The notes under the pieces: model-generated | Told to the model about the DNA's origin: nothing | Database searches by the model: none | What the model saw: only the letters and a program-made list of their open reading frames with translations | Shown here: in pieces, positions 21,377 through 63,000 of the stretch | Layout of the letters: each line of letters starts with the position of its first letter | Position numbering within the stretch: the stretch's first letter is position 1 | Assembly (NCBI GenBank): GCA_943736015.1 | Contig: OX031056.1 | Coordinates: 67,793,277-67,857,276, forward strand | From: Tridacna crocea | Lineage: Eukaryota; Mollusca; Bivalvia; Cardiida; Cardiidae | Reading direction: 5' to 3' | DNA length: 64,000 nucleotides | Program-made: the position numbers and the translations under genes

Positions 21377-21860
21377 TTAAACCCATTACCACTCAGTCCC
21401 TACTTTTGACGCCCCTGAGAAAGAAACCTTTAGAAAACATTGTTGGAAAAGGAGAAAATGCTGGTAACCAGCATTTTCTCCTTTTCCCACAATGTTTTCT
21501 ACCCTTCACAAAACAAATTTCAAATTTTCAGTCACTTTTATTTTATCGTCTGCAAATGCTTTCAATTTTGACAAGCCTAAAATGTTGTTGTTTGGTAATG
21601 AGTTAACCCCTAATGCACCAAACCTATAAGTTTAACTCTCTACCAAACGACAAAATTTTGGACTGGTCCAAAATGAAAGCATTTGCAGACGACAAAATAA
21701 TTGTGCTTGAAAACAAGAAAATTATTGTCGAAAGGGTAGAAAACATTGTGGGATAAGGAGAAAATGCTAGTTACCAGCATTTTCTCCTTTTCCCACAATG
21801 TTTTCCAAAGGCTTCTTGCTCAAGGTCCTTAAAAGTCAGGATCGTGTGGTAAAGGGTTAT
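21377..21860. mobile_element. Two TTAA palindromic MITEs, opposite orientation
   Basis: 21377-21606 is plus (centre GCTGGTAACCAGC). 21632-21860 is minus (centre GCTAGTTACCAGC, one unpaired arm base). Confidence 0.92.
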
Positions 21861-39000: not shown

Positions 39001-42000
39001 CGTAAAGGCCATTAACATTAATCCATTACAGCACAATCTCGAGTTTTATTGACCCTGTAAGAGATCGCTTTTGAAAACAATGTGGGAAAAGGGAGAAAAT
39101 GCTGGCAACCAGCATTTTCTCCTTTTCTCACATTGTTTTCTACCTGATCAAAAACAAAAATCATCATTTCAGTTACATTTATTTTGTTGTCTGCAAATCC
39201 TTTCAGTTTGGACCAGTCTAAATTTTTGTCATTTGGTAAAGAGTTAAACTTCACGTTCTTCCCCTCGTGTTTTCTATATGTAATACAATCTTGATACAGC
39301 TTTTAATTATAAGGACAAAGTCATAGAAATTTAGTTCTAAATGAATCATGTTCTGCAGAAGAGGAATTGTAATGCATCTGCATATGAATTGCAGTATTTC
39401 CTGCTTTTCCCACAATGATTTCCATCCTTTCAAATATTGATCTCTCAATTTGAGCCTCAATTAATTTGTCATCTGCAAGTACTTTTGATTTGGACTGACT
39501 CACAATTTTGTCGCTTGGTAAATAGTTAGGCCATAGTGGTTACCTATATTTTTAGCTCACCTGAGCACGAAGTGCTCATGGTGAGCTATTGTGATCATGC
39601 TGTGTCCGGCGTCCGTCATCCGTCGTGCATCGTGCGGCGTGCGGCGTGCGTCGTGCGTCGTCCGTCGTCAACTTTTTACCTTGTGTACGCTCTAGAGGCC
39701 ACAGTTTTAGTCGGATACTCATGAAAATTGGTCAGGATGTTTGTCTCGATGAAATCTCGGACGAGTTCGAAAATGGGTCATGTGGGGTCAAAAACTAGGT
39801 CACTAGGTCAAATCTTAGAAAAACCTTGTGTACGCTCTAGAGGCCACATTTTGAGTCGGATACTCATGAAAGTTGGTCAGGATGTTTGTCTCGATGATAT
39901 CTCGGACGAGTTCGAAAATGGGTCACGTGGGGTCAAAAACTAGGTCACCAGGTCAAATCTTAGAAAAACCTTGTGTACGCTCTAGAGGCCACATTTTCAG
40001 TCGGATACTCATGAAAGTTGGTCAGGATGTTTGTCTGGATGATATCTCGGACGAGTTCGAAAATGGGTCACGTGGGGTCAAAAACTAGGTCACCAGGTCA
40101 AATCTTAGAAAAACCTTTTGTACGCTCTAGAGGCCACATTTCCAGATGGATACTCATGAAAGTTGGTCAGGATGTTTGTCTGGATGATATCTCGGACGAG
40201 TTCGAAAATGGGTCACGTGGGGTCAAAAACTAGGTCACCAGGTCAAATCTTAGAAAAACCCTTTGTACGCTCTAGAGGCCACATTTTCAGTCGGATACTC
40301 ATGAAAGTTGGTCAGGATGTTTGTCTGGATGATATCTCGGACGAGTTCGAAAATGGGTCACGTGGGGTCAAAAACTAGGTCACCAGGTCAAATCTTAGAA
40401 AAACCTTTTGTACGCTCTAGAGGCCACATTTTCAGTCGGATACTCATGAAAGTTGGTCAGGATGTTTGTCTGGATGATATCTCGGACGAGTTCGAAAATG
40501 GGTCACGTGGGGTCAAAAACTAGGTCACCAGGTCAAATCTTAGAAAAACCTTTTGTACGCTCTAGAGGCCACATTTTCAGTCGGATACTCATGAAAGTTG
40601 GTCAGGATGTTTGTCTGGATGATATCTCGGACGAGTTCGAAAATGGGTCACGTGGGGTCAAAAACTAGGTCACCAGGTCAAATCTTAGAAAAACCTTTTG
40701 TACGCTCTAGAGGCCACATTTTCAGTCGGATACTCATGAAAGTTGGTCAGGATGTTTGTCTGGATGATATCTCGGACGAGTTTGAAAATGGGTCACGTGG
40801 GGTCAAAAACTAGGTCACTAGGTCAAATCTTAGAAAAACCTTTTGTACGCTCTAGAGGCCACATTTCCAGATGGATACTCATGAAAGTTGGTCAGGATGT
40901 TTGTCTGGATGATATCTCGGATGAGTTCGAAAATGGGTCACGTGGGGTCAAAAACTAGGTCACTAGGTCAAATCTTAGAAAAACCTTTTGTACGCTCTAA
41001 AGGCCACATTTTCAGTTGGATACTCATGAAAGTTGGTCAGGATATTTGTCTGGATGATATCTCGAACAAGATCGAAAATGGGTCATGTGGGGTCAAAAAC
41101 TAGGTCACTAGGTCAAATGTTAGAAAAACCTTTTGTAGGCTCTAAAGGCCACATTTTCAGTCCGAAACTCTTGTAAGTTGGTCAGAATGTTTGTCTTGAT
41201 GATATCTCAGACAGGTTTGAAAATGGGTCATTGGGGGTTAAAAACTAGGTCACCAGGTCAAATCTTAGAAAAACCCTGTATATACTCTGGATGCCACATT
41301 TTCAGTCCAACACTCTTGAAAATTAGTCAGAATGTTTGCCTTTATAATATCTTGGATGAGTTTGAAAATGGGTCATGTTGGGTCAAAAACTGGGTCAATA
41401 GGTCAAATGTTATAAACACCTTTTGTATGCTCTGGAGGACACATTTTCAGTCTGATACTCCTAAAACTTGTTCATTATATTTGTCCTGGTGATACCTTGA
41501 ATGAGATTGAAAATGGGTCATGTGGAGTCAAAAACTAGGTCAATGGGTCAAATATTAGAAAAACCTTGTGTACACTCTAGAGGCTACATTTTCTGCCTGA
41601 TATTCTTCAGACTTGGTCAGAATGTTTGTTTTGGTGATGTCTCAAAAGAGTTTGATAATGGGTAATTGTCGGGTCCAAAACTAGGTCACTTGATGAAATC
41701 TTAGAAAAACCTTTTGTACACTGTAGAGGCCACATTTTCAGTCCAATACTCATGAAACTTGGCCAGAATGTTTGTCTTATTGATATCTCAAAAGTGTTTG
41801 ATGATGGGTAATGTCTGATAAAAAACTAGGTCACTGGGAAACTAGATGGTGCATGTTTGGTCAATAAACTCAGGTGAGCGATTTCAGGGCCATCATGGCC
41901 CTCTTGTTCAAGGATATTTGTAAGCTGTCTGCTGGTTAACTGTTTACCAGAAGGCAAAATTTTAGACTGTTCCAAATTCAAAGCAATAGCAGACAACAAA

Positions 42001-45000
42001 ATCAAAGTGACTCAAAAATTAGAATTTCTTTCGGGAAGGGTGGAAAACATTGTGGGAAAAGGAGAAAATGCTGGTTACTAGCATTTTCTCCTTTTCTCAC
42101 AATGTTTTCAAAAGGCTTCTTCCACAGATTCGTGAAAACGAGGGATCGTTTGGTAAAGAGTTAATTGTTAGCTCCACTGGCTGAAGGCCAGCGGGCTTAT
42201 GTCATGGCCCGTTGTCTGCCGTGCGTCCGTTCGTCCGTGCGTTACATTTTTCTTTAAACATCTTCTTCTCTGAAACTACCTATCCAATTTTGATGAAACT
42301 TCACAAAAATGATCCTGTCATGGTCCTCTTCTGAATTTCTTGAAAGAATTTAATTCCTTCAAAAACTCTGGTTGCCATGGCAACAAAACTGAAAAATTTT
42401 GAAAATCTTTGAAAATCTTCTTGTCTGAAACCGTAAGGCCTAGGGCTACCAAATTTTGCATGTAGCTTTATCTAGTGGACCTCTACCAAGTTTCCTCAAA
42501 TTATAGCCCTTGGGTCAAAATTGGCCGCGCCGCGGGGGTCACAAGTTTTACATGGGCTTATTTAGGGAGAACTTTAAAATTCCTCTTCTACCTAGGCATA
42601 GGGCCTAGGGCTACCAAATTTGGCATGTAGTTTTATCTAGTGGACGTCTACCAACAGTGTCCAAATTATAGCCCTGGGGTCAAAATTGGCCCCGCCCCGG
42701 GGGTAACAAGTTTTACATGGGCTTATATAGGGAAAACTTTAAAATTCTTCTTCCACCTAGCCATAGGGCCTAGGGCTACCAAATTTGGCATGTAGTTATT
42801 ATAGCCCAGGGGTCAAATTTGGCCCCTCCCGGAGGGGGGGGGGAACAAATTTTACATGGGCTTTATTACAGAAAACTTTCAAAATCTTCTCGCACCTAGC
42901 TATAAGGGCTAGGGCTATCAAATTTTACATGTAGCTTTATCTAGGGGTTCTCTATCAAAGGGTACCCCAATTATAGCCCTGGGGTCAAATTTAGCCCCGT
43001 CCCAGGGGGTCACAAGTTTTACATGGGCTTATATACGGAAACTTTAATAATCTACTCGTACATAGCCATAAGACCTAGGGCTACCAAATTTTGCGTGTAG
43101 CTTTATCTTATGGGCCTCTACCAAGAGGGCCCAAATTTTAACTTTAGGGGTCAAGTTTGACCCCACCCCAGGGGTCACAGGTTTTACATTGGCTTTTATA
43201 GTGAAAACTTGATAAACCTGTCTCATGGGTCACATATTTTAGAGGGCCTTTTATTTAGCAAACTTGTTTTACAGGGCTTTTTATTGGGCAAGATTAAAAA
43301 ATCTTCTTGTTTATAACCACACATTCTAGTTTCATATCGTAGGTCTGGGGTCAAAATTGGCTCCATTCCAGGGATCACAAGTTTAACATGGGCTTCAAAA
43401 TATAGTCACTTCAATTTAAACATTAATCAAGGGAAATAACTCTCTTAATGAAAGATAAAGTTTGGTACTATTTACCTCCCTTGATTATGAAACTGCATTG
43501 ATACATGATTGGTGCTAGACATTAAGTTTTTTGATAGAAAGTATTCCGTTTTCAAGGAGTGTTATTCATTTTGATGCTAATAGTTATGCTCACATGAGGT
43601 GAATAATAAATTCAGAGTAAGGTTTCTATCATTCAGCTTATTTTTCCAAGGATTTTACCTTTCATGCTAATGAATTAATCTGCTTGTATTGCCTGACAGT
43701 GTTCATTCTTTTTTAAGGCCGTCTTTTTCATGGTCATGAACACTTCAATTTGTGTGGTAAAGGGTTAAAAAGCCAGTGGAGCGATACAGGGCCATCATGG
43801 CCCTCTTGTTTTTAGTTAAATACAGTGCTTATTATTATATTATGCCATGTAAAAAGGGGGTATAAGTGCAGCTTCAAAAAGTGTTGAACCTCATCAGCCT
43901 GCCCAGTCCACTCAGACTGACATGTGTCAAAACCTTTTGCAATATGTCAATTTTGGGCATGTCAAGAGATTGTTCTACCTTATGATTAAGTCAGGTTCAA
44001 TGTTTTTTACCCATCTCAAAAGAAAGTTTATATTTTCTAAGGGATATTCATTTTGTCATCTGCAAATGTATTCAGTTTGGACCAGTCTTAAATGTTGTCA
44101 TGTGGTAAAGAGTTAAATGGTTTTCTTTTGTGGTTTGATAGATGACTTGTAATTTCTCTTTCAACAGACATGGAAACATTTCAAATACAAGCTGGCGGAG
44201 TTTGCTTACTTCTTCCAACTGTGGCATGGCCATCTGAAGAAGATTGAAGGCCATTTTGGGACTGGTGTACTGTCCTATTTTCTCTTCCTAAAGTGGCTGT
44301 TTTACATCAACATTCCTGTATTTCTGCTAACCTTCGGATTTGTAATCCTACCGCAGATTTTGTACCAGTCCATGGGAGACCAAAGTTACAGTGATGAAAA
44401 GTTTACAGGGAAAGAATTGATTACAGGAGCTGTAAGAATTTTGTTTTAACTCTTTACCAAACGACAAAATTTTAGACTTGTCCAAATTGACAGCATTTGC
44501 AGACAACAAAATAAAAGTAGCAGAAAATTTGAAATTTGTTTTGTGAAGGATAGAAAACATTGTGGAAGAAGGAGAAAATGCTGGTTAGCAGCATTTTCTC
44601 CTTTTCCCAAAATGTTTTCTAAAGGCTTCTTTCTCAGGCTTGTCAAAAGTAGGGATTGTGTGGTAATGGGTTAACCCTTTCCCAAACAATCCCTGGTTTT
44701 TACGGGTCTGGAATAGTAACCTTTTGAAAACATTGTGGGAAAAGGAGAAAATGCTGATAACCAGCATTTTCTCCTTTTCCCACAATGTTTTCCAGCCTAT
44801 CATAGACAGAAATCATCTACTCAGCAAGAGTTCAATTGTCGTCTGCAAATGATTTCAATTTGGTCTAGTCCAAAAGTTTGTCATTTGGGAAAGGGTTAAC
44901 TCTTTACCAAACAACAAAATTTTAGACTTGTCCGAATTGAAAGCATTTACAGACAACAAAATAAATGTAACTCAAAAATTGAAATGTGTTTCCAGCAGGG

Positions 45001-48000
45001 TAGAAAACATTGTGGGAAAAGGAGAAAATGCTGGTTACCAGCATTTTCTCCTTTTCCCACAATGTTTTCTAAAGGCTTCTTTCTCAGGATTGTCGAAAGT
45101 AGGGATTGTGTGGTAATGGGTTAACTCTTTATCAAATGACAAAATTTTAGACTTGTCCAAATCGAAAGCTTTTGCAGACAACAAATAAATGTAACTCAGA
45201 AATTGAGATCTCTTTCCAGCAGGGTAGAAAACATTGTGGGAAAAGGAGAAAATGCTGATAAACCAGCATTTTCTCCTTTTCCCACGTTTTCAAAAGGCTT
45301 CTATCTCATTGTAGTAAAAACCAGAGGGTTAAATCTTTACTACACAAGAGGTTTTATACGTCACCAAAGCATTGCAGGCAACATTTTCTCAAATGTTGGA
45401 ATTTGTCTTTGTTAGGGTAGGAAACACAATGTTTTTCAAAAGGTTTCTTCCTCAGGGTCACTAAAATTGAAAAAGGGGTAAATATTTTACTAGACAATCC
45501 CTTGTTTCAGTGACCCTGCTGGAGGTTTGGAGGTTTTGAAATTATCATGGTAAAATAAGAAAAATGCTCGTAATCAGCTTTTTCTCCTTTTTCACAATGT
45601 TTTTAATCCTTTTGAAATCATAGTAAAGAAGAAAAAAGCTGGTAATCAGCTTTTTCTCCTTTTTCACAATGTTTTTAACCCTTTAATAATAGTTGGGTTT
45701 TTTTTTGTGTGTGTTTTTTTTTTATCTAGCCCATGTTTACTTTGTCATTATCACTTTGATAGTGCTGGGTACTCGCATTTTCTCCTTCTCCCGCAATGTT
45801 TCAAAGACTGTCTTCCTATGAGTCATTTAAGTTGGGATTGTATGGTAAAGGGTTTATTTTGCTCCTTTTTCTCTTTCAGTACTGGTTCACGGACACAGAG
45901 CTGTATTATGGGTTCTACACTGCAAAGAAAATAACGCTGAATGACGGGGATGCGTACTATAACATGAAATATGCCTACCTGTTTACCTGTGGAGGTTACT
46001 ACATTCTCTGTTTGATAATCCTGGCAATAAGGTAGGTCAGAGCTCCAGATAGAGGGAGTGATTTTGATTTCAAAATTAAAGATATTGATAATTCTCCGCT
46101 AAACCCTATGTTGTGGGTACTCATTAGAATTGTCTCATCGAGACAATTCTAATGAGTACCCACAACATAGGGTTTGGAAGAGAAATAATGGATTTAGAAT
46201 GCCATCACTCACTTTTATCTGGAGCTCTGTAGGTCAGTCAAAATTTACTTCATGCTTTATGTTAGGTTATTGAGAAATATCAGTGAAGTATTTTTTCGAT
46301 ATTTTATGATTATGACCAGTGAAAATACCAACTTTTGTATTCTAACTCTTCAATTGAAGGGGGAACAGTTGTTTCCACACACTAGGTAACCAGGTAACAT
46401 GCATGTGCCTCACAACCAGATGGAAATATGATGTAATTACCTTATGTTTCTCGCGCTTGATGTAATGTTGTAATGAGTTGCCATACGGGAGGGGGGGGGG
46501 TATGCCATGGGGAATAAGTGAAAATATCTGCACTGGATTTTGATTAATAAGTTCCCCCCTCAAAAAAGGTGTTGGAAGCGTCAATTAATAGAATATTTCG
46601 ATGGGTGAGTGCAAGACTATTGTAAGTGCATATACATTGTATATGCACTTAACAATAGTCTTGCACTTACCCATTGATTTGTTTTTTCGGTGAAAGGTAG
46701 AAATTTATTTCATCTTGTGAACATCATCGGTAATATTTTTCACAAGTGGCTGTGCCACTCATGAAAAATATTACCAATGATGTTCATGAGATGGAGCCAA
46801 GAGTGAAAATATAACCAATAATGTTCACAAGATAAAATCAATTTTCATTTTTCATTTAAAAAAAAAAAAAAAAATATCTACATGTATATATATTCTTACC
46901 ATTCCAATATAGTTATCTTTTTTAGAGTGCCCTGAGCATATCTTGAAGACACATATCATTTCGTAAGAAAACAAATAGATCTCTTTGAGACAGGGCAATA
47001 TATTGAGGTCAGATATGGTGCCCGTAACATAGATAGACTATTACTTGAGTCATAACAAGAATACCAAATAAGAAACAAAATACTAGATATACTAATTGGA
47101 CCCTATATTGCAAAAATATCTCTCCCATTGCAAAGATAGTTGCATTTGATTGCATTTTGTACAGGTTGTCATTCAGCTTTGTTAACATGTGCTGTGGGTA
47201 ATAGATCGAAATGCTCCTTTAACCTTTTACCACACAATGACAACTTTTAACACCATTGAGGAAGAAGCCTTTTGAAAATATTGTAGGAAAAGGAGAAAAT
47301 GCTGGTAAGCAGCATTTTCTCCTTTTCCCACAATGTTTTCAACCCTCTCAAGATCAAATTCCATTAATTTAGTCAAATTTTAATTATCCTCTGCAAATGC
47401 TTTCGATTTGGAAAAGGCTAAAATTTTGTCGTCTTGTAAAGGGTTAACTTGAAGAACCAGTCAACTAATGGAAATATGAAGTATTTTCAAGAGAATTCTG
47501 TGAATACAATAGAAAATTGTCATGAAAAAATTAAGATATAACAAGGCTCAACAATTATCAGTTTCCACCAACCTTCTTATGTATTTTTGATATACAAGAA
47601 TACAATATATATTTTATCTATATGCTTATCCTTTTGCATGTTCAAATACTGCAAATAGAAATTTTATTGTTATACATTTCACTGTGTTAATGGAAAAGTT
47701 TTGTTCTATGTTTTCAGTATCTCAAGATCCTACAAAAAGAATTATATAGAAGGAAGTGGTGCCTTTGATTTTTACTATGTGAGCAGAGTTTTTTGTGGCT
47801 GGGACTATGGTATCACTGCAAAACAGTCGGCTGATCTTAAACACAAAAGTATTTATAATGAATTAAAGGTAAGCTTAGTTCATAACTAATCATTCACCAG
47901 GCTAGTTTAAGACATACATGTAGTTCAATGCAGTATAAGTTACAGAGAGAGGAAATATTTGAAGAAGACAACCGAATCTCCGAAAAAAAGACAATCACGT

Positions 48001-51000
48001 CTGCCTTATCAGACAAAAAAGATGAATAATTCATAGCACAGACAAAATGCTGGTTGCTAAAATTTTCTTCTTTCACCATAATGTTGTTAACAGTTTTCTT
48101 CCTTTTGAGACATAGTAGAATTTGGAACGTTTTGTAAAAAGGCTTATAGATATTTATTGAATATTTTGCATTCAGATGATTAACCCATTACCACACAATC
48201 CCTACTTTTGACACCCCTGAGAAAGAAGCCTTTAGAAAACATTGTGGGAAAAAGAGAAACCAGCATTTTCTCCTTTTCCCACAATGTTTTCTACCCTTCA
48301 CAAAACAAATTTCAAATTTTCAGTCACTTTTATTTTGTCGTCTGCAAATGCTTTTGATTTGGACAAACCTAAAATTTTGTCGTCTGGTAATGAATTAAGT
48401 AATAACATTACTGTTTGGTTACCTTGAATACAGTCAGTAAATAAAACCTGCTCTCTAAAAAAGGGGCCAAATGCATCTAAACAAAGTATCAACCCTGGTC
48501 AGCCTATGCAATCAGGACAGGCTGACCTGGGTAAAAACCTTTTACCATTATCAGTTTTCTGCATGCCTAAAGACCAGTCTACCCCATGATTCAAATCAGT
48601 TAGTAAGACAAAATAGATTTTATGGATCCAAAATTATGTGATGACTAGTGTGATACATCACAAAGATGCATTATACCCCCTTTTGTCAGAGTGGCATTTA
48701 ACCTGTTTGCAATATTCATTTTTTTCTGATTATCAGGAGTACCTGTCTGGTAGAAATAAGGAAAAGCAAGAAGTTAGCATTGGGGTGAAATGTAAATGGT
48801 TCTTTATCCGTTTGCTTACCAATCTTGTTACCTTCAGTTTGATTGGTGGATCTTGTTATCTGATTTATTACATCTCCGTGGAGGTGTCCTTGTCAGAAAA
48901 TGTAAGCAATTTTAATCTCATTCTTCTTTATTTATTTATTTTTGTTTTAGCCCGCCTGGGTGGCTCAGTGGTGAGCATGTCGGACTCATGACCTGGTGGT
49001 TGTGAGTTCGATACCCGGTTGAACTTTCTCTCCGGCGTATTTTTGCCTTTCACCTCTGCTGAAACATGTGAGAAAAGTAGTCGTTGGCTTTAAAAAAAAA
49101 ATTGTGTTAGCACTGGTGTGAGAGAGCCAGGAAACATATTTGCGTCACCGACCGCCATGATATGACGTTAGCTGTAAAAGTGGTGTTAAACCACAATACA
49201 ACCAACTAAATCTTTATTTTTTACTATTTCGTTATCTTTCCAAACCGTTTATAAACAAGAAAATTTTAGACTGGTAAAAAATTTGAAAGCATTTACAGAT
49301 GACTAAATGAATGCTTCTGAAAAATTCAATTTTTTTTTGAAGAGTGGAAAACATTCTGGGAAAAGGGAGAAAATGCTGGTAACCAGCATTTTCTCCTTTC
49401 CCCACAATGTTTTCTACAGTCATTTTTCTTTGGGTTTGAAAAAACTCGGGATTGTATAGTAAAGAGTTAACTTTTTACAAATTGACAAAAATTTAGACCT
49501 GTCAAAATTATAAGCATTTGCAGAAGACAATTTCACAGTGACTCAAATAATGTGACTTTTCTGTGATAGAGTAGAAAACACTGTCAGAGTTAAAAGGAGA
49601 AAATGCTTTCGTCTTTTACCACATTGTATTCAGAAGGCTCCTTCCTCAAGGTCGTTAAAAGTCTGAATTGTTTATAAAGGGTTTTTCAGTCTATACCAAA
49701 CTCTTAATCAAACAAGAAAAATGTAGACCTGTCCAAAGTGAAAGCATTTGCTCATGATAATTTGAATGAATTTCTATTTCTTAGACCGAATCAGAACAAA
49801 AAAGAAAAACATATGCACCTTCCCTGGTCAGTTTTCTGTTATACATCTCAGATTAGAACAGTTAAAAACTTGCATTAACAGTATTTTGCATGCAACATTT
49901 TTTATAGACCCAAAGGGTTGTATTATTGCCCCGATCATAGTCTGTCTGTATATCTGTCCATTGGCAATTTCTTGTGTGCGTAACTCCTCCCCTACAGTTT
50001 TAACTAGAATAAGTCCATATTTACCATAATTGATCTCTATTATGTGTAGTTGTGCATGTGACTCTTAAAATTTGGATATCTTTAACCCTTTCCCAAACGA
50101 CAAACTTTTGGACTAGACCAAATTGAAAACATTTGCAGACAACATTTCAACTCATGCTGAAAAGATGATTTCTGTCTATAATAGGGTGTAAAACATTGTG
50201 GGAAAAGGAGAAAATGCTGGTTACCAGCATTTTCTCCTTTTCCAGCAATGTTTTCAAAAGGCTATTATTCTAGAGCCGCAAAAACCAGGGATTGCTTGGG
50301 AAAGGGTTAAGCTCTAGATTGTAACCCATTTCACTATCAAGCCGCTTTCGGGCTTACATATGCCACTCTGTAAGTTCTTGTTTCCGCAATGTTTCAAAAA
50401 CCTTATTTTTATAGGTCTTGATGAGATGAGACAATGAGATTGTTTTGTAAAGTGTTTTCATGTTATATATTTATACTGTTACACCTTATTTTGTTTTTCC
50501 TAAAGGAAGACATACCAGTGTTAAGTGAGATGGCCATGCCACTGTGTGTCTCTGGTGTGAATCTTATTCTTCCATTTTTCTTCGCTCAAATTGCACAACT
50601 TGAAAAATACAAGAAACCTAAAAATGAATTATACATCAACATGACAAGGTAATATTTCATATACTACTTGTTTGTGTTACATATTATAACTAAGTTTGTT
50701 TTTGGTATTTACACATAGGTTTAACAGCTGTGATAAGTCTCACTGTTTTCAGAATTAGTTTTGGACTTCGAAACTTAAGCTTTGTTTAATTCTGCTTCAT
50801 CAGTGATTTACTTTCTAGATCAAGATAAAAAAAAGTTTTTTGTAGGGAAATCATGGACCAAGTAAACATTCTAAACTTTTTAAACCATTACCACTCAATG
50901 ACACCTTTTAATGCCCCTGGGGAAGAAGTCTTTTGAAAACATAGTGGGAAAAGGAGAAAATGCTGGTAACCAGCATTTTCTCCTTTTCTCACAAAGTTTT

Positions 51001-57000: not shown

Positions 57001-60000
57001 TAACTCATTACCAAACAACAAAATTTTAGTTTTGTCCAAATCGAAAGCATTTGCAGACAACAAAATAAAAGTGACTGAAAATTTGAAATTTGTTTTGTAA
57101 AGTGTAGAAAACATTGTGGTTACCAGCATTTTCTCCTTTTCCCACAATTTTTTCTTACTGCTTCTTTCTCAGGGTCGTCAAAAGTAGGGATTGTGTGGTA
57201 ATGGTGTAAAAGAGGTCGACAGCTACTCATGTATTTTGTTTAAGATAAAGATTATATTGTTTGCAGAACACCAAAACAAATGAACAAAGAAAATTGAATC
57301 AATAAAACGTCAATGAAAAGAATTTTGCAATTTTCAGATCAGTGTGATACAGAATTGTAAGCCGTCACTCAGACCATGGAGGGCTGCCAGATCTCATACA
57401 ATATTCCTTGGATTCTTAATGTGTTTCTTTATACTGACAACAACTGCTGTCACTTGTGCTGTAATCTTGTAAGTTTTATACATTTCTGTACACCAAGTAA
57501 ATAAAAGATTTATATTAAGCCATGGTGTGAAAAGAGGGTAAAATGCATCTTGATGCAACTTAAAAAAGTATCCACTCATGTCAGCAAGCGCAGTCCGCAT
57601 TACAACTCTGAGAAAGACGCCTTTAATGGATCTTATATTTTATGATTACTTTCACTGAGATGAAGTAACCCTTTACTGCACAATGCAGACTTTTAATGAT
57701 CCTGAGAAAACATTGTTAGAAAAGGAGAAACTGTTTTCTATCATATGATAGGCAAATTTTTATGTTCTCAGTTATATTTAATTTGTCATCTGCAGATGCT
57801 TTCAATTTGAACAAGGCTAAAATTTTGTCGCCTGGTAAAGTAACATGGCCCAAATATTTCTACATTTATGATCTTTGCACCTCAGACTTCAAAATGAAGG
57901 TTTGTAATCCTTGAAGTGTTAAATAAATGAAAAGGAAGTCTGGTAGCCCAGTTAACTCTTTACCAAACAATCCCTGGTTTTTATGACCCTGAGATAGGAG
58001 ACTTTCGAAAACAGTGTGAGAAAAGGAGAAAATGCTGGTAACCAGCATTTTCTCCTTTTCCCACAATGTTTTCTACCCTGCTGGAAACAAACTTCCGAGT
58101 TAGGTTTATTTTGTCGTTTGAAAGCAAGATCTTGTCGTTCGGTAAAGAGTTAATTATGCACAGCGCCTGATCAATTGGGGTTTCTATTTCAAATCCTCAG
58201 CTCAATTAAGTTTTTTGGGAGAATAACTGCTAATCAGTGTGGCAGGATTTCCTCTTCTACCATTGATCAATAATGCTTTGACATTACATACTTGGGAAAG
58301 CAGCCACTGACTGGGACGCATCTTGTGCAAAGTACTTGTAGAAAGAAACTCAATGGATGGAAAAGTGCAGTGGCTGACAAGATATAAGTGAAATAATGTT
58401 GAAAATGGCTTTAAACATCATATAATCCATTAAATCAAACTGTCATTTTAGCCACATTGATGTTGTTAGATTTTTCGACTGTTAATTCATTTAATATTGA
58501 AAACAAGAACTTTTTTGCCATGGTAAAGAGTGTAGAAATGACTGTTTCATGCTTTCCGGAAGGTATCAAGAAATAGCAGTGAAAATATTTTTCAACCTTA
58601 CACTGGTACCACCAGTGAAAATGCTGATATTCATGTTCTTGTTGCCTAGGTTAACTGCACATGTCTTACAACTAGATGGAAATATGACGTCATTTACCTT
58701 ACATTTCTCACGCTTGACGTAATATTGTAATGCGTTGCTATGCGGGAGGGGTACGCCATTGGGAATAACGAAAAGGCACTATACTCAGTTTTGATAAAGC
58801 TCCTCCCAGAAAGGGTTAAAGGCATGAAATAAATAGAATATTTGTTTTTTTGGGTGAAAGATCAAAATTTATTTCATCTTGTGAACACCATTGGTAATAT
58901 TTTCACTCGTGGCTGTACCACTCGTGAAAATATTACCGATGATGTCTACTCGATGAAATAAATTTCGATCTTTCACCGAAAAAAACAAATATCCACTATG
59001 TCATATCCATACTGAATTTTTTCATTAACTTGGCTGTTTTTGAAGAAAACATCAAGATGGTAGCCCTTCCATCACAATCTACATTGTTATTGTACTAAAA
59101 GTTTGACATTTTGTAATATATTATGTAAATGCTGGAGATACTTACTTCAAACATGGACTAATTGTTAACTATCAAAAAGGAAACCCATACAACAGGAATA
59201 GGTAACCACTGAAATATTTTTGACAGGGTTAGGCCCCTTTTTTGGCTTAGAACTTTCAGGAAAAACACCTACAGGATAGTGTTTGGACCCTCATTCAGTG
59301 CTCTTGCTTTCCAAATATTGGTATTCTATGTTTCAGTTTGAAGCCCAGTGATGTCTGTGGACCATTTATAAACCACACAACAAGTTACGAGATCGTGGTT
59401 AACCTTGTGGACGATTTGAAGGAGGAATACAATGTGTTACATACTATCATTCGACTCATCTCATCGTCAGGGTTCATCGCTGGATTACTGGTCTTCCTCT
59501 TGTAGGTTATGTTGCTTGCAAAATATCTGACATCATTTCTATCCATATAATTCCTTTTCATTCACAAAAGCCCGTAACCCATTACCACACAATCCCTACT
59601 TTTGACGCCCCTGAGAAAGAAGCCTTTAGAAAACATTGTGGGAGAAGAAGAAAATGCTGGTAACCAGCATTTTCTCCTTTTTATACGCCCATCGAAGACG
59701 GGACGTATTATGGGATCACCCGTGGCAGGCGGGCGGGCGGGCGGCGTCCAGTTCTTTGTCCTGAGCATATCTCCAAAACTATACTAGCTAGGGTTATGAA
59801 ATTTCATGGGTGGATACATCTCATTGAGGGGGAGTGCAGTGCACAAGAATCATAACTCTTGCTCGCTTAATTTTTGAGTTATTGCCCTTTGTTGTTTTTC
59901 ATACTTGAATTTTGTCCGGAGCATATCTCCAAAACTATACTAGCTAGGGTTATGAAATTTCATGGGTGGATAGATCTCATCAAGGGGGAGTGCAGTGCAC

Positions 60001-63000
60001 AAGAATCATAACTCTTGCTCGCTTAATTTTTGAGTTATTGCCCTTTGTTGTTTTTCATACTTGAATTTTGTCCGGAGCATATCTCCAAAACTATACTAGC
60101 TAGGGTTATGAAATTTCATGGGTGGATAGATCTCATTGACGGGGAGTGTAGTGCACAAGAATCATAACTCTTGCTCGCTTAATTTTTGAGTTATTGCCCT
60201 TTGTTGTTTTTCATACTTGAATTTTGTCCGGAGTATATCTCCAAAACTATACTAGCTAGGGTTATGAAATTTCATGGGTGGATAGATCTCATTGACGGGG
60301 AGTGCAGTGCACAGGAATCATAACTCTTGCTTGCTTAATTTTTGAGTTATTGCCCTTTGTCGTTTTTCATACTTGAATTTTGTCCGGAGCATATCTTCAA
60401 AACTATAGTAGCTAGGGTTATGAAATTTCATGGGTGGATAGATCTCACCGAGGGGGAGTGCAGTGCACAGGAATCATAACTCTTGCTTGCTTAATTTTTG
60501 AGTTATTGCCCTTTGTCGTTTTTCATACTTGAATTTTGTCCGGAGCATATCTCCAAAACTATACTAGCTAGGGTTATGAAATTTTATGGGTGGATAGATC
60601 TCATTGACGGGGAGTGCAGTGCACAGGAATCATAACTCTTGCTCGCTTATTTTTGAGTTATTGCCCATTGTTGTTTTTCATACTTGAATTATGTCCGGAG
60701 CATATCTCCAAAACTATACTAGCTAGGGTTATGAAATTTCATGGCTGGATAGATCTTACCGAGGGTGTGTGCAGTGCATAAGAATCATAACTCTTGCTTG
60801 CTTAATTTTTGAGTTATTGCCCTTTGTCTTTTTTCATACTTGATTTTTGTACGGAGCATATCTCCAAAACTATAGTAGCTTGGGTTATGAAATTTCATGG
60901 GTGGATAGATCTCATCCATGGGGAGTGCAGTGCACAGGAATCACAACTCTTGCTTGCTTTATTTTTGAGTTATTGCCCTTTGTTGTTTTTCATACTTGAA
61001 TTTTGTCTGGTGCATGCCCCACCTTTACAACTTGGGGTAAGACGGGCGTATCTTGCGACAATTTGCCGCTCTTGTTCCACAATATTTTCTACTTTTCCTA
61101 AATATAATTTTGATTCTTCAATCACATTTATTTTGTCTTCTGCAGATGCTTACAATTTGGACCAGTCTATAAATTTGTAGTTTGGTAAAGAGTTAAGGAG
61201 GGCTATAACTGCTAACTACCTGGCATCAATTTGTCTGCCATGTGTTATGGGAGACCACTCCTTCCTGCATGGCATACTCCCGATTTAAATACAATACCTG
61301 GCTACTGCGTCAGGGAGATATCTCTTTGGCTCAGTGGTTAGGGTATTGGCTTTGCGTCCGGGAGTTCGGAGTTCGAATCCCGCTCCGATCCTTATTTCTG
61401 CCATGCATTTATTCATTTGTTTCTTTGTTACGGACTTCGTTCGTAAGATGGGGGCTCGTCCGGGATTGGCCATTGAGCCATTAATCCCATTTGTTGTCCA
61501 AAATCGGACTTCCTGCCTAATAAGGCTTTGAGTCATCAATAAATGATGACTTTAAGAGGGGGTGTGTTATGGGAGACCACTCCTTCCTGCATGGCATACT
61601 CCCGATTTAAATACAATACCTGGCTACTGCGTCAGGGAGATATCTCTTTGGCTCAGTGGTTAGGGTATTGGTCTTGTGTCCGGGAGTTCCGGAGTTCGAA
61701 TCCTGCTCCGACCCTTATTTCTGCCATGCATTTATTCATTTGTTTCTTTGTTACGGACTTCGTTCGTAAGACATGTCTTTAACGCTTTATCAGAAAACAG
61801 AAATTAAGCCTTGTCCAAATTGAAAGCATTTGCAGACAACAATTCCAATGTGGCTAAAAAACAGTGCAATCATTTTTTGATGGAGTGAAAAACATTTTGG
61901 GAAAAGGAGAAAATGCTGGTTACCAGCATTTTCTCCTTTTCCCAAAATGTTTTCAAAAGGCTTCTTTTTTGTCATTTTGTGGTAAAAGGTTAACTCTTTG
62001 CCACATGACAAAAGTGTATACTAGACCAAATTGCTAGTATTTGCAAAGGTCAAGTGTAATATGCCGCCAATGATGGAATTTATAGGGAAGAAAATATTGT
62101 CGGTAGAGAATATTGACGGATAAGGAGAAAATACTGTTTAGCAGCATTTTGTTAAGCTTTTCCCTTTCAAGCAATTCTTTCTAAAGGCTTCTTTCTGAGG
62201 GTTGTTGAAGCTGGGGATTGCATTGAATGATTCAAGTTGATTGGGCATGATGTGTGATGTTTGTATTTCTAGCAAAAATTGTAACTATCTCAGAGATAGC
62301 ATCTGAACACGACATATAAGATCTGACATGAGTTGGCTTTTGAGATGAAATATTTCTAAACAAGTCTAGGGAAAATGTTATTAAAGGAGCCTTTGGCGAG
62401 CTTAATAACATTTTTCCTTGACGAGTTTAATAAAATTTCATCTTAAATGCCACCGAATGTCAGATTCTTTTTATCACATAACAATATTTCACTAATGATT
62501 GTTCAGAAGATGCAAAAAACATCTACAGATGCACCCCCAGATATATCTGTATATCCCGTTCACTTCTATGAAAAACATTAAAACTGATGTCAAAAATGAT
62601 GTCACATAAATGTGATATTACACATATATAAGATAAGAAAATTCGTAATGGGTATATTACACAGATAAATAGATAATATATATCCAAATATAAAGATTCA
62701 ACTGAGATTGTTTAAAGGACTACCATACTTTTTACTAAATGACAAAAAATCAAAGTTAACTCTGCGAAACAAGGGAAAAACTGGTTTTGCAGTTGGTAAA
62801 GATTTTCTGTAACAGAACAGATTGGGTACCATAAGTTGGAGTATGATTTAGACCTTTAGTAGACAGTCTTGTCATAACTTTTTTTCTTTCCCATCAACTT
62901 GAGAGTTTTATTATACCCCCAGAAAACAAATGTTGTTGGGGGTATACTCGAATCAGCCTGTTTGTCTGTGTGTCCACCAGTCTGTGTGTCCGTGTACAAA

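What the first reader, a model, noticed from the sequence alone, without database searches (positions are those of the whole stretch)
61243..61771. A 529-bp LTR retroelement with tRNA-Pro primer site and a tRNA-like promoter inside each LTR
Seen: near-identical 206/207-bp direct repeats, a perfect 18-nt tRNA-Pro PBS abutting the first, a polypurine tract abutting the second, CATG flanking both sides, and tRNA-type box A and box B in each LTR. Known: TRIMs are miniature LTR elements, and plant Cassandra TRIMs carry a 5S rRNA promoter in the LTR. Inference: this is an animal analogue using a tRNA-type pol III promoter, mobilised in trans by a tRNA-Pro-primed retroelement. I am not aware of a described molluscan family of this kind, and I could not search.
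Basis: partly seen in the sequence, partly recalled or inferred. Interest (0 to 1): 0.88.

Follow-up and report, generated by a model that had tools for sequence, protein, structure and literature searches.

The report
Mini LTR retrotransposon with tRNA-like promoter
This is one of well over a thousand copies, in this animal genome, of a very short protein-less retrotransposon whose end repeats carry a tRNA-type promoter; that kind of element (Helenus) was described in 2024, but this genome also shows which larger retrotransposon probably moves it.

Summary
The 529-bp element has 206/207-bp LTRs (97.1% identical), an 18-nt tRNA-Pro-type primer site abutting the 5' LTR, a polypurine tract 2 nt before the 3' LTR, a CATG target duplication, and tRNA-type boxes A and B in each LTR. 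The host assembly (1.05 Gb) has 1,647 exact PBS+10-nt sites and 2,652 exact LTR-end sites; reversed-pattern controls are 0. Of 38 canonical copies read, 36 have a perfect 4-bp target duplication, as do 7 of 10 solo LTRs and 6 of 6 tandem arrays.

The kind is known: Kojima 2024 named it Helenus, with 51 families in pteriomorph bivalves. This is a new member.

New here: a likely driver, a Gypsy family with integrase before reverse transcriptase (Gmr1-like order), sharing PBS, similar LTR tips and PPT, and a 4-bp duplication, with 701 LTR-PBS sites. One chimera, joined at the PBS, puts Helenus-type LTRs on that family's gag-integrase. Fold-back LTRs centred 7 nt before box A may mark the RNA 5' end. 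Pol III transcription remains inferred; box conservation among copies is weak support.

The parts
61239..61242 (.). target site duplication, left copy (CATG)
61243..61448 (+). 5' LTR, 206 bp, TGTTATGG...CGTAAGA; 28 of the 41 listed matches in the host assembly score as fully identical (this one included; only 40 of 1,014 first-look candidates were scored)
61315..61324 (+). 10-nt palindrome GAGATATCTC just upstream of box A; centre of fold-back LTRs elsewhere in the genome; inferred region of the RNA 5' end
61327..61337 (+). box A (TGGCTCAGTGG) of the tRNA-like promoter, 5' LTR
   Evidence: same in 104 of 107 full genomic LTRs
61370..61380 (+). box B (AGTTCGAATCC), 5' LTR
   Evidence: RGTTCGANNCC in 106 of 107 full genomic LTRs
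61449..61466 (+). primer binding site, 18 nt, tRNA-Pro type
   Evidence: PBS+10 nt at 1,647 exact places genome-wide
61467..61553 (+). spacer of the internal domain, no long ORF
61554..61562 (+). polypurine tract AAGAGGGGG, followed by TG and then the 3' LTR
   Evidence: compare AAGAGGGGAAG in the candidate partner
61565..61771 (+). 3' LTR, 207 bp
61649..61659 (+). box A, 3' LTR
61693..61703 (+). box B, 3' LTR
61772..61775 (.). target site duplication, right copy (CATG)

Best explanation
A Helenus-type TRIM: an LTR retrotransposon without genes that is most likely transcribed by RNA polymerase III from the tRNA-like promoter inside its 5' LTR, packaged in particles of a Gypsy element of Gmr1-like gene order with the same PBS, reverse transcribed from its PBS and PPT, and inserted with a 4-bp target duplication. 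Shown: anatomy, copy number, target duplications, young copies, a candidate partner with the same PBS, and one integrated chimera between the two. Inferred: pol III use, an RNA 5' end near window 61315, and co-packaging. Model: RNA from about 61315 through the whole 3' LTR; the element holds no TTTT, so pol III would run on to the next T run (61873 here), leaving about 135 nt of terminal redundancy for strand transfer.
For: 36 of 38 canonical copies read have perfect 4-bp target duplications, as do 7 of 10 full solo LTRs and 6 of 6 tandem arrays. 18 of 38 copies have no LTR-LTR substitution. Genome counts are 1,647 (PBS+10 nt) and 2,652 (LTR end), controls 0. Box A is exact in 104 of 107 full LTRs and RGTTCGANNCC present in 106 of 107. 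No TTTT in 37 of 38 canonical copies, against 14 overlapping TTTT in each of the longer LTRs of the partner copy; shuffles lack TTTT in 1.2% (one LTR plus internal) or 3.0% (LTR alone) of 5,000. Partner: same 18-nt PBS, TGTTATG...CGTAACA tips, AAGAGGGGAAG PPT, ATTA duplication, domain order gag - integrase - RT - RNase H. Chimera L111: Helenus-type LTRs at both ends, PBS, then 3.3 kb about 94% identical to the partner, with an ACTA duplication. Fold-back LTR centre 7 nt before box A in the three loci examined; its central 26-mer at 39 exact sites.
Against: No expression data. Conservation of the boxes among copies is weak evidence: in 107 LTRs 30 of 196 windows of 11 bases vary as little as box A, and 108 of 196 as little as the whole box B (one search had looked stronger because its box B range left out the variable first base). 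Box B has that off-consensus base in most copies (GGTTCGA in 14 of 107). The tRNA-like stretch has no tRNA fold: no tRNA match at E up to 10, fold z about 0. The TTTT shortage is modest and the copies are related; a diverged fold-back LTR (L113) does hold TTTT between the boxes. Outside the tips, the TRIM and partner LTRs share only a 12-nt local match. The partner has a 5-nt spacer before its PBS that the TRIM lacks. The chimera shows no evident PPT before its 3' LTR. Its junction pattern occurs at only 8 places, one of them read.
Confidence: 0.75

Rival explanations
1. An ordinary TRIM transcribed by RNA polymerase II; the tRNA-like stretch is a relic of a SINE that once landed in the LTR and does nothing now.
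For: The stretch has no tRNA fold; box B is one base off consensus in most copies and, taken whole, is no less variable than much of the LTR; no RNA data.
Against: Box A and the core of box B are kept in nearly all 107 LTRs, though many copies are young; TTTT is absent from 37 of 38 copies; fold-back LTR centres lie 7 nt before box A.
Confidence: 0.25
2. The chimera (L111) and the fold-back LTRs arose by DNA-level rearrangement (ectopic recombination, gene conversion, palindrome-driven inversion), not during reverse transcription, and so say nothing on co-packaging or on the RNA start.
For: Only one chimera was read in full; GAGATATCTC is itself a palindrome within a longer imperfect one, which could drive rearrangement; other rearranged inverted copies exist, such as C13:35972244-35972863 and C5:4651789-4652499.
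Against: L111 has near-identical LTRs (98.5%) and a 4-bp duplication, so it was most likely inserted as one unit; the junction falls at the PBS, where second-strand transfer joins molecules.
Confidence: 0.3
3. A local tandem duplication of a tRNA-derived SINE.
For: The tRNA-like boxes; one tRNA-SINE-like copy with a box pair lies elsewhere in the window (48961-49005).
Against: The same LTR-internal-LTR unit with different 4-bp duplications recurs across the assembly; solo LTRs have duplications too.
Confidence: 0.01

Closest known systems
Helenus (Kojima 2024, PMC10886601; results, discussion, tables and figure legends read; one passage of the introduction)
   Same: TRIM with tRNA-like boxes A and B in the LTR, PBS and PPT, 4-bp target duplication in animals, tRNA-Pro among bivalve primers, 311-1263 bp long, Gypsy suspected as driver in animals
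   Different: Not compared by sequence (Repbase and the supplement were not available). The driver proposed there for animals rests on PBS likeness. The words Gmr1 and palindrom do not occur in its main text, and the sections read describe no animal chimera.
Cassandra (plants)
   Same: TRIM with a pol III promoter inside the LTR
   Different: 5S rRNA promoter with a terminator, so that the RNA ends share only 18 bp (passage in PMC10886601); here tRNA-type, no TTTT in the element, predicted redundancy about 135 nt
biv-TRIM (Satovic et al. 2019, PMC6934838; first part of the results and the discussion read)
   Same: bivalve TRIM, terminal repeats of 202-218 bp, solo repeats and tandem arrays
   Different: internal domain of 77-80 bp, no canonical PBS, conserved TGATCCCAAAGGAC; here 116 bp, an 18-nt PBS, and no such motif in the element
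Gmr1-like Ty3/Gypsy elements (candidate partner, not the TRIM itself)
   Same: integrase before reverse transcriptase (order described in a PMC6238403 passage); a SCAN match in gag below Pfam's cut-off, SCAN being derived from a Gmr1-like capsid (PMC3406341 passage)
   Different: clade membership not tested by a tree here

Membership tests
Helenus | TRIM: two LTRs, short internal part, no coding capacity, 311-1263 bp | tested here: met
   529 bp, internal 116 bp; longest ORF overlapping it 84 aa, not searched for relatives
Helenus | tRNA-like sequence in the LTR with box A (TRGCY...YGG) and box B (GGTTC) | tested here: met
   box A exact in 104 of 107 full genomic LTRs; box B RGTTCGANNCC in 106 of 107, but strict GGTTCGA in only 14 of 107 and not in the window copy: met with one common departure
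Helenus | PBS and PPT between the LTRs | tested here: met
Helenus | 4-bp target duplication (animal Helenus) | tested here: met
   36 of 38 canonical copies
Helenus | sequence match to a published Helenus family | not testable with these tools
   consensus sequences are in Repbase or the supplement, not held
Helenus | host in a lineage reported to have it (Pteriomorphia among bivalves) | not tested
   the assembly is unnamed; I ran no call to identify the host
TRIMp3 (functional pol III promoter) | transcription by pol III | not testable with these tools
   no RNA or ChIP data
Cassandra | 5S rRNA sequence in the LTR | tested here: not met
   no Rfam match in the window at gathering score; at E up to 10 in 61200-61820 only one chance-like microRNA match
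biv-TRIM | internal domain of 77-80 bp with TGATCCCAAAGGAC and no canonical PBS | tested here: not met
   116-bp internal with an 18-nt PBS; motif not within the element with up to 3 mismatches
Gmr1-like Gypsy (partner) | integrase upstream of reverse transcriptase | tested here: met
   one copy, L112/L114: zf-CCHC and SCAN (both below Pfam's cut-offs), then Integrase_H2C2, rve, p58_C, then RVT_1, then RT_RNaseH
Gmr1-like Gypsy (partner) | groups with Gmr1 in an RT or integrase tree | not tested
   no reference sequences fetched

The most novel reading that the evidence does not exclude
The element records its own life cycle in the genome. Pol III starts its RNA at a 10-nt palindrome just upstream of box A, so two strong-stop cDNAs can anneal by their 3' ends and extend into a fold-back LTR whose centre marks the RNA start. 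TRIM RNA travels in particles of a Gmr1-like Gypsy element, where intermolecular strand transfer at the shared PBS makes chimeric insertions that carry gag and integrase between tRNA-promoter LTRs.
Probability: 0.3. Interest if true: 0.65.

Novelty: new member of a known kind. Interest (0 to 1): 0.45.

Why it matters
For animal Helenus the driver element was inferred from PBS likeness and the use of pol III from box conservation. A genome with over a thousand copies, many very young, a candidate partner at hundreds of sites and at least one chimera makes both questions testable in one animal. The fold-back LTRs, if they arise during reverse transcription, offer an RNA-free way to guess a transcription start.

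Tried and rejected
A local SINE duplication was rejected by genome-wide target duplications. Cassandra and biv-TRIM membership were rejected. The tRNA-like stretch as a real tRNA gene was rejected: ARAGORN found none in the window, and neither Rfam nor folding gave a tRNA shape. A scan of viral contigs with the PBS region found nothing; one with a window ORF found no relative. The 116-bp internal domain as a DNA query found nothing, not even the window's own copy; the tool says that it skips very common words. Paper searches on strand-transfer chimeras (0 papers) and on palindromic LTRs with self-priming (2 papers, listing seen only) did not settle the point. The empty-site comparison is only supportive: the best related copy of the surrounding repeat (window 21420-21757) is 74% identical and gapped near the insertion point. 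Pfam scans of four window ORFs found no family at E up to 0.1. The claim that boxes A and B are the least variable LTR parts, drawn, was withdrawn.

Full report
What is there. The window holds a 529-bp element at 61243-61771. Its LTRs are 206 and 207 bp and 97.1% identical; the internal part is 116 bp. The primer site TGGGGGCTCGTCCGGGAT directly follows the 5' LTR. The purine run AAGAGGGGG is followed by TG and then the 3' LTR. CATG stands on both sides. Each LTR has a tRNA-type box A (TGGCTCAGTGG) and box B (AGTTCGAATCC), starting 43 and 44 nt apart. With box B written so as to allow A or G at its first base, no pair arose in 5,000 dinucleotide shuffles of the LTR, and only one other pair occurs in the window. 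A first set of patterns had not matched the box B of this element, and gave a pair in 3 of 5,000 shuffles.

It is a mobile family. The window lies in an unnamed 1.05-Gb assembly of 31 contigs. PBS plus ten bases occurs 1,647 times exactly, and the last 20 bases of the LTR 2,652 times, with reversed-pattern controls of 0 in both. Ninety loci, chosen by LTR identity (30), exact PBS+10 nt (30) and exact LTR end (30), merge into 59 regions with 68 element chains. Of 38 canonical LTR-internal-LTR copies, the window's among them, 36 have a perfect 4-bp target duplication; the misses are C1:893421 (one mismatch) and C13:35972333 (beside an inverted fragment). Of 10 full solo LTRs 7 have one (misses: C1:1567570, C5:4651789, C5:43352043), as do 6 of 6 tandem arrays. 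The other 14 chains are partial or rearranged and have no perfect duplication by that script. Eighteen of 38 canonical copies have no LTR-LTR substitution (median 0.485%), so many are young; the first 30 loci were picked for likeness to the window LTR, but in the 21 canonical copies among the first sites on C1 it is 10 of 21. The window copy has 5 substitutions and one indel between its LTRs, clustered in the tRNA-like stretch.

The promoter. Across 107 full genomic LTRs (61 distinct) box A is exact in 104 and RGTTCGANNCC is present in 106. This is weak evidence of selection: in the same 107 rows, 30 of 196 windows of 11 bases vary as little as box A (mean minor-base frequency 0.0025) and 108 of 196 as little as the whole box B (0.0127); only box B without its first base is very uniform (0.0009), and the stretch between the boxes is the most variable of the parts compared (0.0231). 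My first count had left out that base and looked stronger. TTTT, the pol III stop, is absent from 37 of 38 canonical copies; shuffles lack it in 1.2% (one LTR plus internal) or 3.0% (LTR alone) of 5,000 trials. The two LTRs of the partner copy each have 14 overlapping TTTT, but are more than twice as long. The tRNA-like stretch does not fold like a tRNA. Together this fits a promoter rather than a tRNA gene, but copies are related, a diverged LTR (L113) does contain TTTT, and no RNA was seen.

The likely driver. Of 210 PBS sites not followed by T, 20 were read around the PBS: 14 were TRIM copies, 4 (L091, L096, L100, L105) end their LTR in CGTAACA with GAAAT before the same 18-nt PBS, and 2 (L097, L104) had a TRIM-type LTR end before another internal sequence. 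The copy at C1:35629543-35635772 has LTRs of 565 and 539 bp starting TGTTATG, PPT AAGAGGGGAAG and an ATTA duplication. Its domains run zinc knuckle and SCAN (both below Pfam's cut-offs), integrase, reverse transcriptase, RNase H: the Gmr1-type order described in PMC6238403 (passage). Its LTR end plus PBS occurs 701 times.

A chimera. L097/L111 (C2:32619977-32623784) has Helenus-type LTRs at both ends, 98.5% identical, an ACTA duplication, and from the PBS onward 3.3 kb about 94% identical to the partner, with a zinc-knuckle match and integrase but no reverse transcriptase match. A junction at the PBS is what second-strand transfer between two co-packaged cDNAs would leave; this step is inference. 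No PPT is evident before its 3' LTR, which this account does not explain. A pattern for that junction found 8 places, of which only this one was read.

Fold-back LTRs. The LTRs of L111 and the 5' LTR of L031 are 258-bp palindromes made of two inverted copies of LTR positions 78-206, centred at GAGAT|ATCTC; L113 is a diverged case centred at GAGAT|ATCCC. In all three the centre is 7 nt before box A, and the central 26-mer occurs at 39 genomic sites. L031 has a normal 3' LTR. In L111 the two arms differ by 6 bases in the 5' LTR and 8 in the 3' LTR; the right arm of the 5' LTR equals the window 5' LTR, from which the left arm differs by 6. This hints at joining of two different molecules, though later mutation is possible. 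If so, the centre marks the RNA 5' end, about where pol III would be expected to start (recalled from tRNA genes). DNA rearrangement at a palindrome is not excluded, and other centres were not searched for.

What is known. Kojima 2024 (results, discussion, tables and legends read) describes Helenus, with the features tested here, including 51 families from pteriomorph bivalves. biv-TRIM and Cassandra fail tested features. Later papers naming TRIMp3, Helenus or Cassandra retrotransposons were sought in one search (12 papers) and bivalve tRNA-derived TRIMs in another (10 papers). By titles and openings of abstracts, the listings showed no report of a Gmr1-like driver or of fold-back LTRs; apart from PMC10886601 and PMC6934838 these papers were not opened.

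Verdict. The partner, the chimera and the fold-back LTRs are the parts worth following.

Noticed in passing
window 61114-61199 and 61776-61861: The element sits inside an inverted repeat (arms 71% complementary). Its right flank matches a palindromic repeat (core GGAGAAAATGCTGGTTACCAGCATTTTCTCC) with more than ten other matches in the window, for example 44896-45082 and 21420-21757.
   Followed up: partly
window 48961-49180: A tRNA-SINE-like copy: the only other box A/box B pair found in the window, followed by a tail ending ...GGTGTTAAACCACAATACAACCAACTAAA.
   Followed up: no
window 59755-61015: About eight tandem copies of a 156-bp unit end just upstream of the element.
   Followed up: no
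window 39678-41835: About 15 tandem copies of a 145-bp unit, 91% matching.
   Followed up: no
G000 C3:13874452-13874756: A chimeric-junction pattern on the minus strand, a fold-back centre and a TRIM PBS on the plus strand lie within about 300 bp, as if one fold-back LTR served two elements head to head. The stretch from 13874452 to 13874677 was not read; from 13874678 on it was (L102).
   Followed up: no
L104/L113 (G000 C4:45288700-45291900): A diverged fold-back LTR of the same type followed by the same 18-nt PBS and an internal sequence that showed no match to the TRIM internal domain or the partner copy beyond the PBS.
   Followed up: partly
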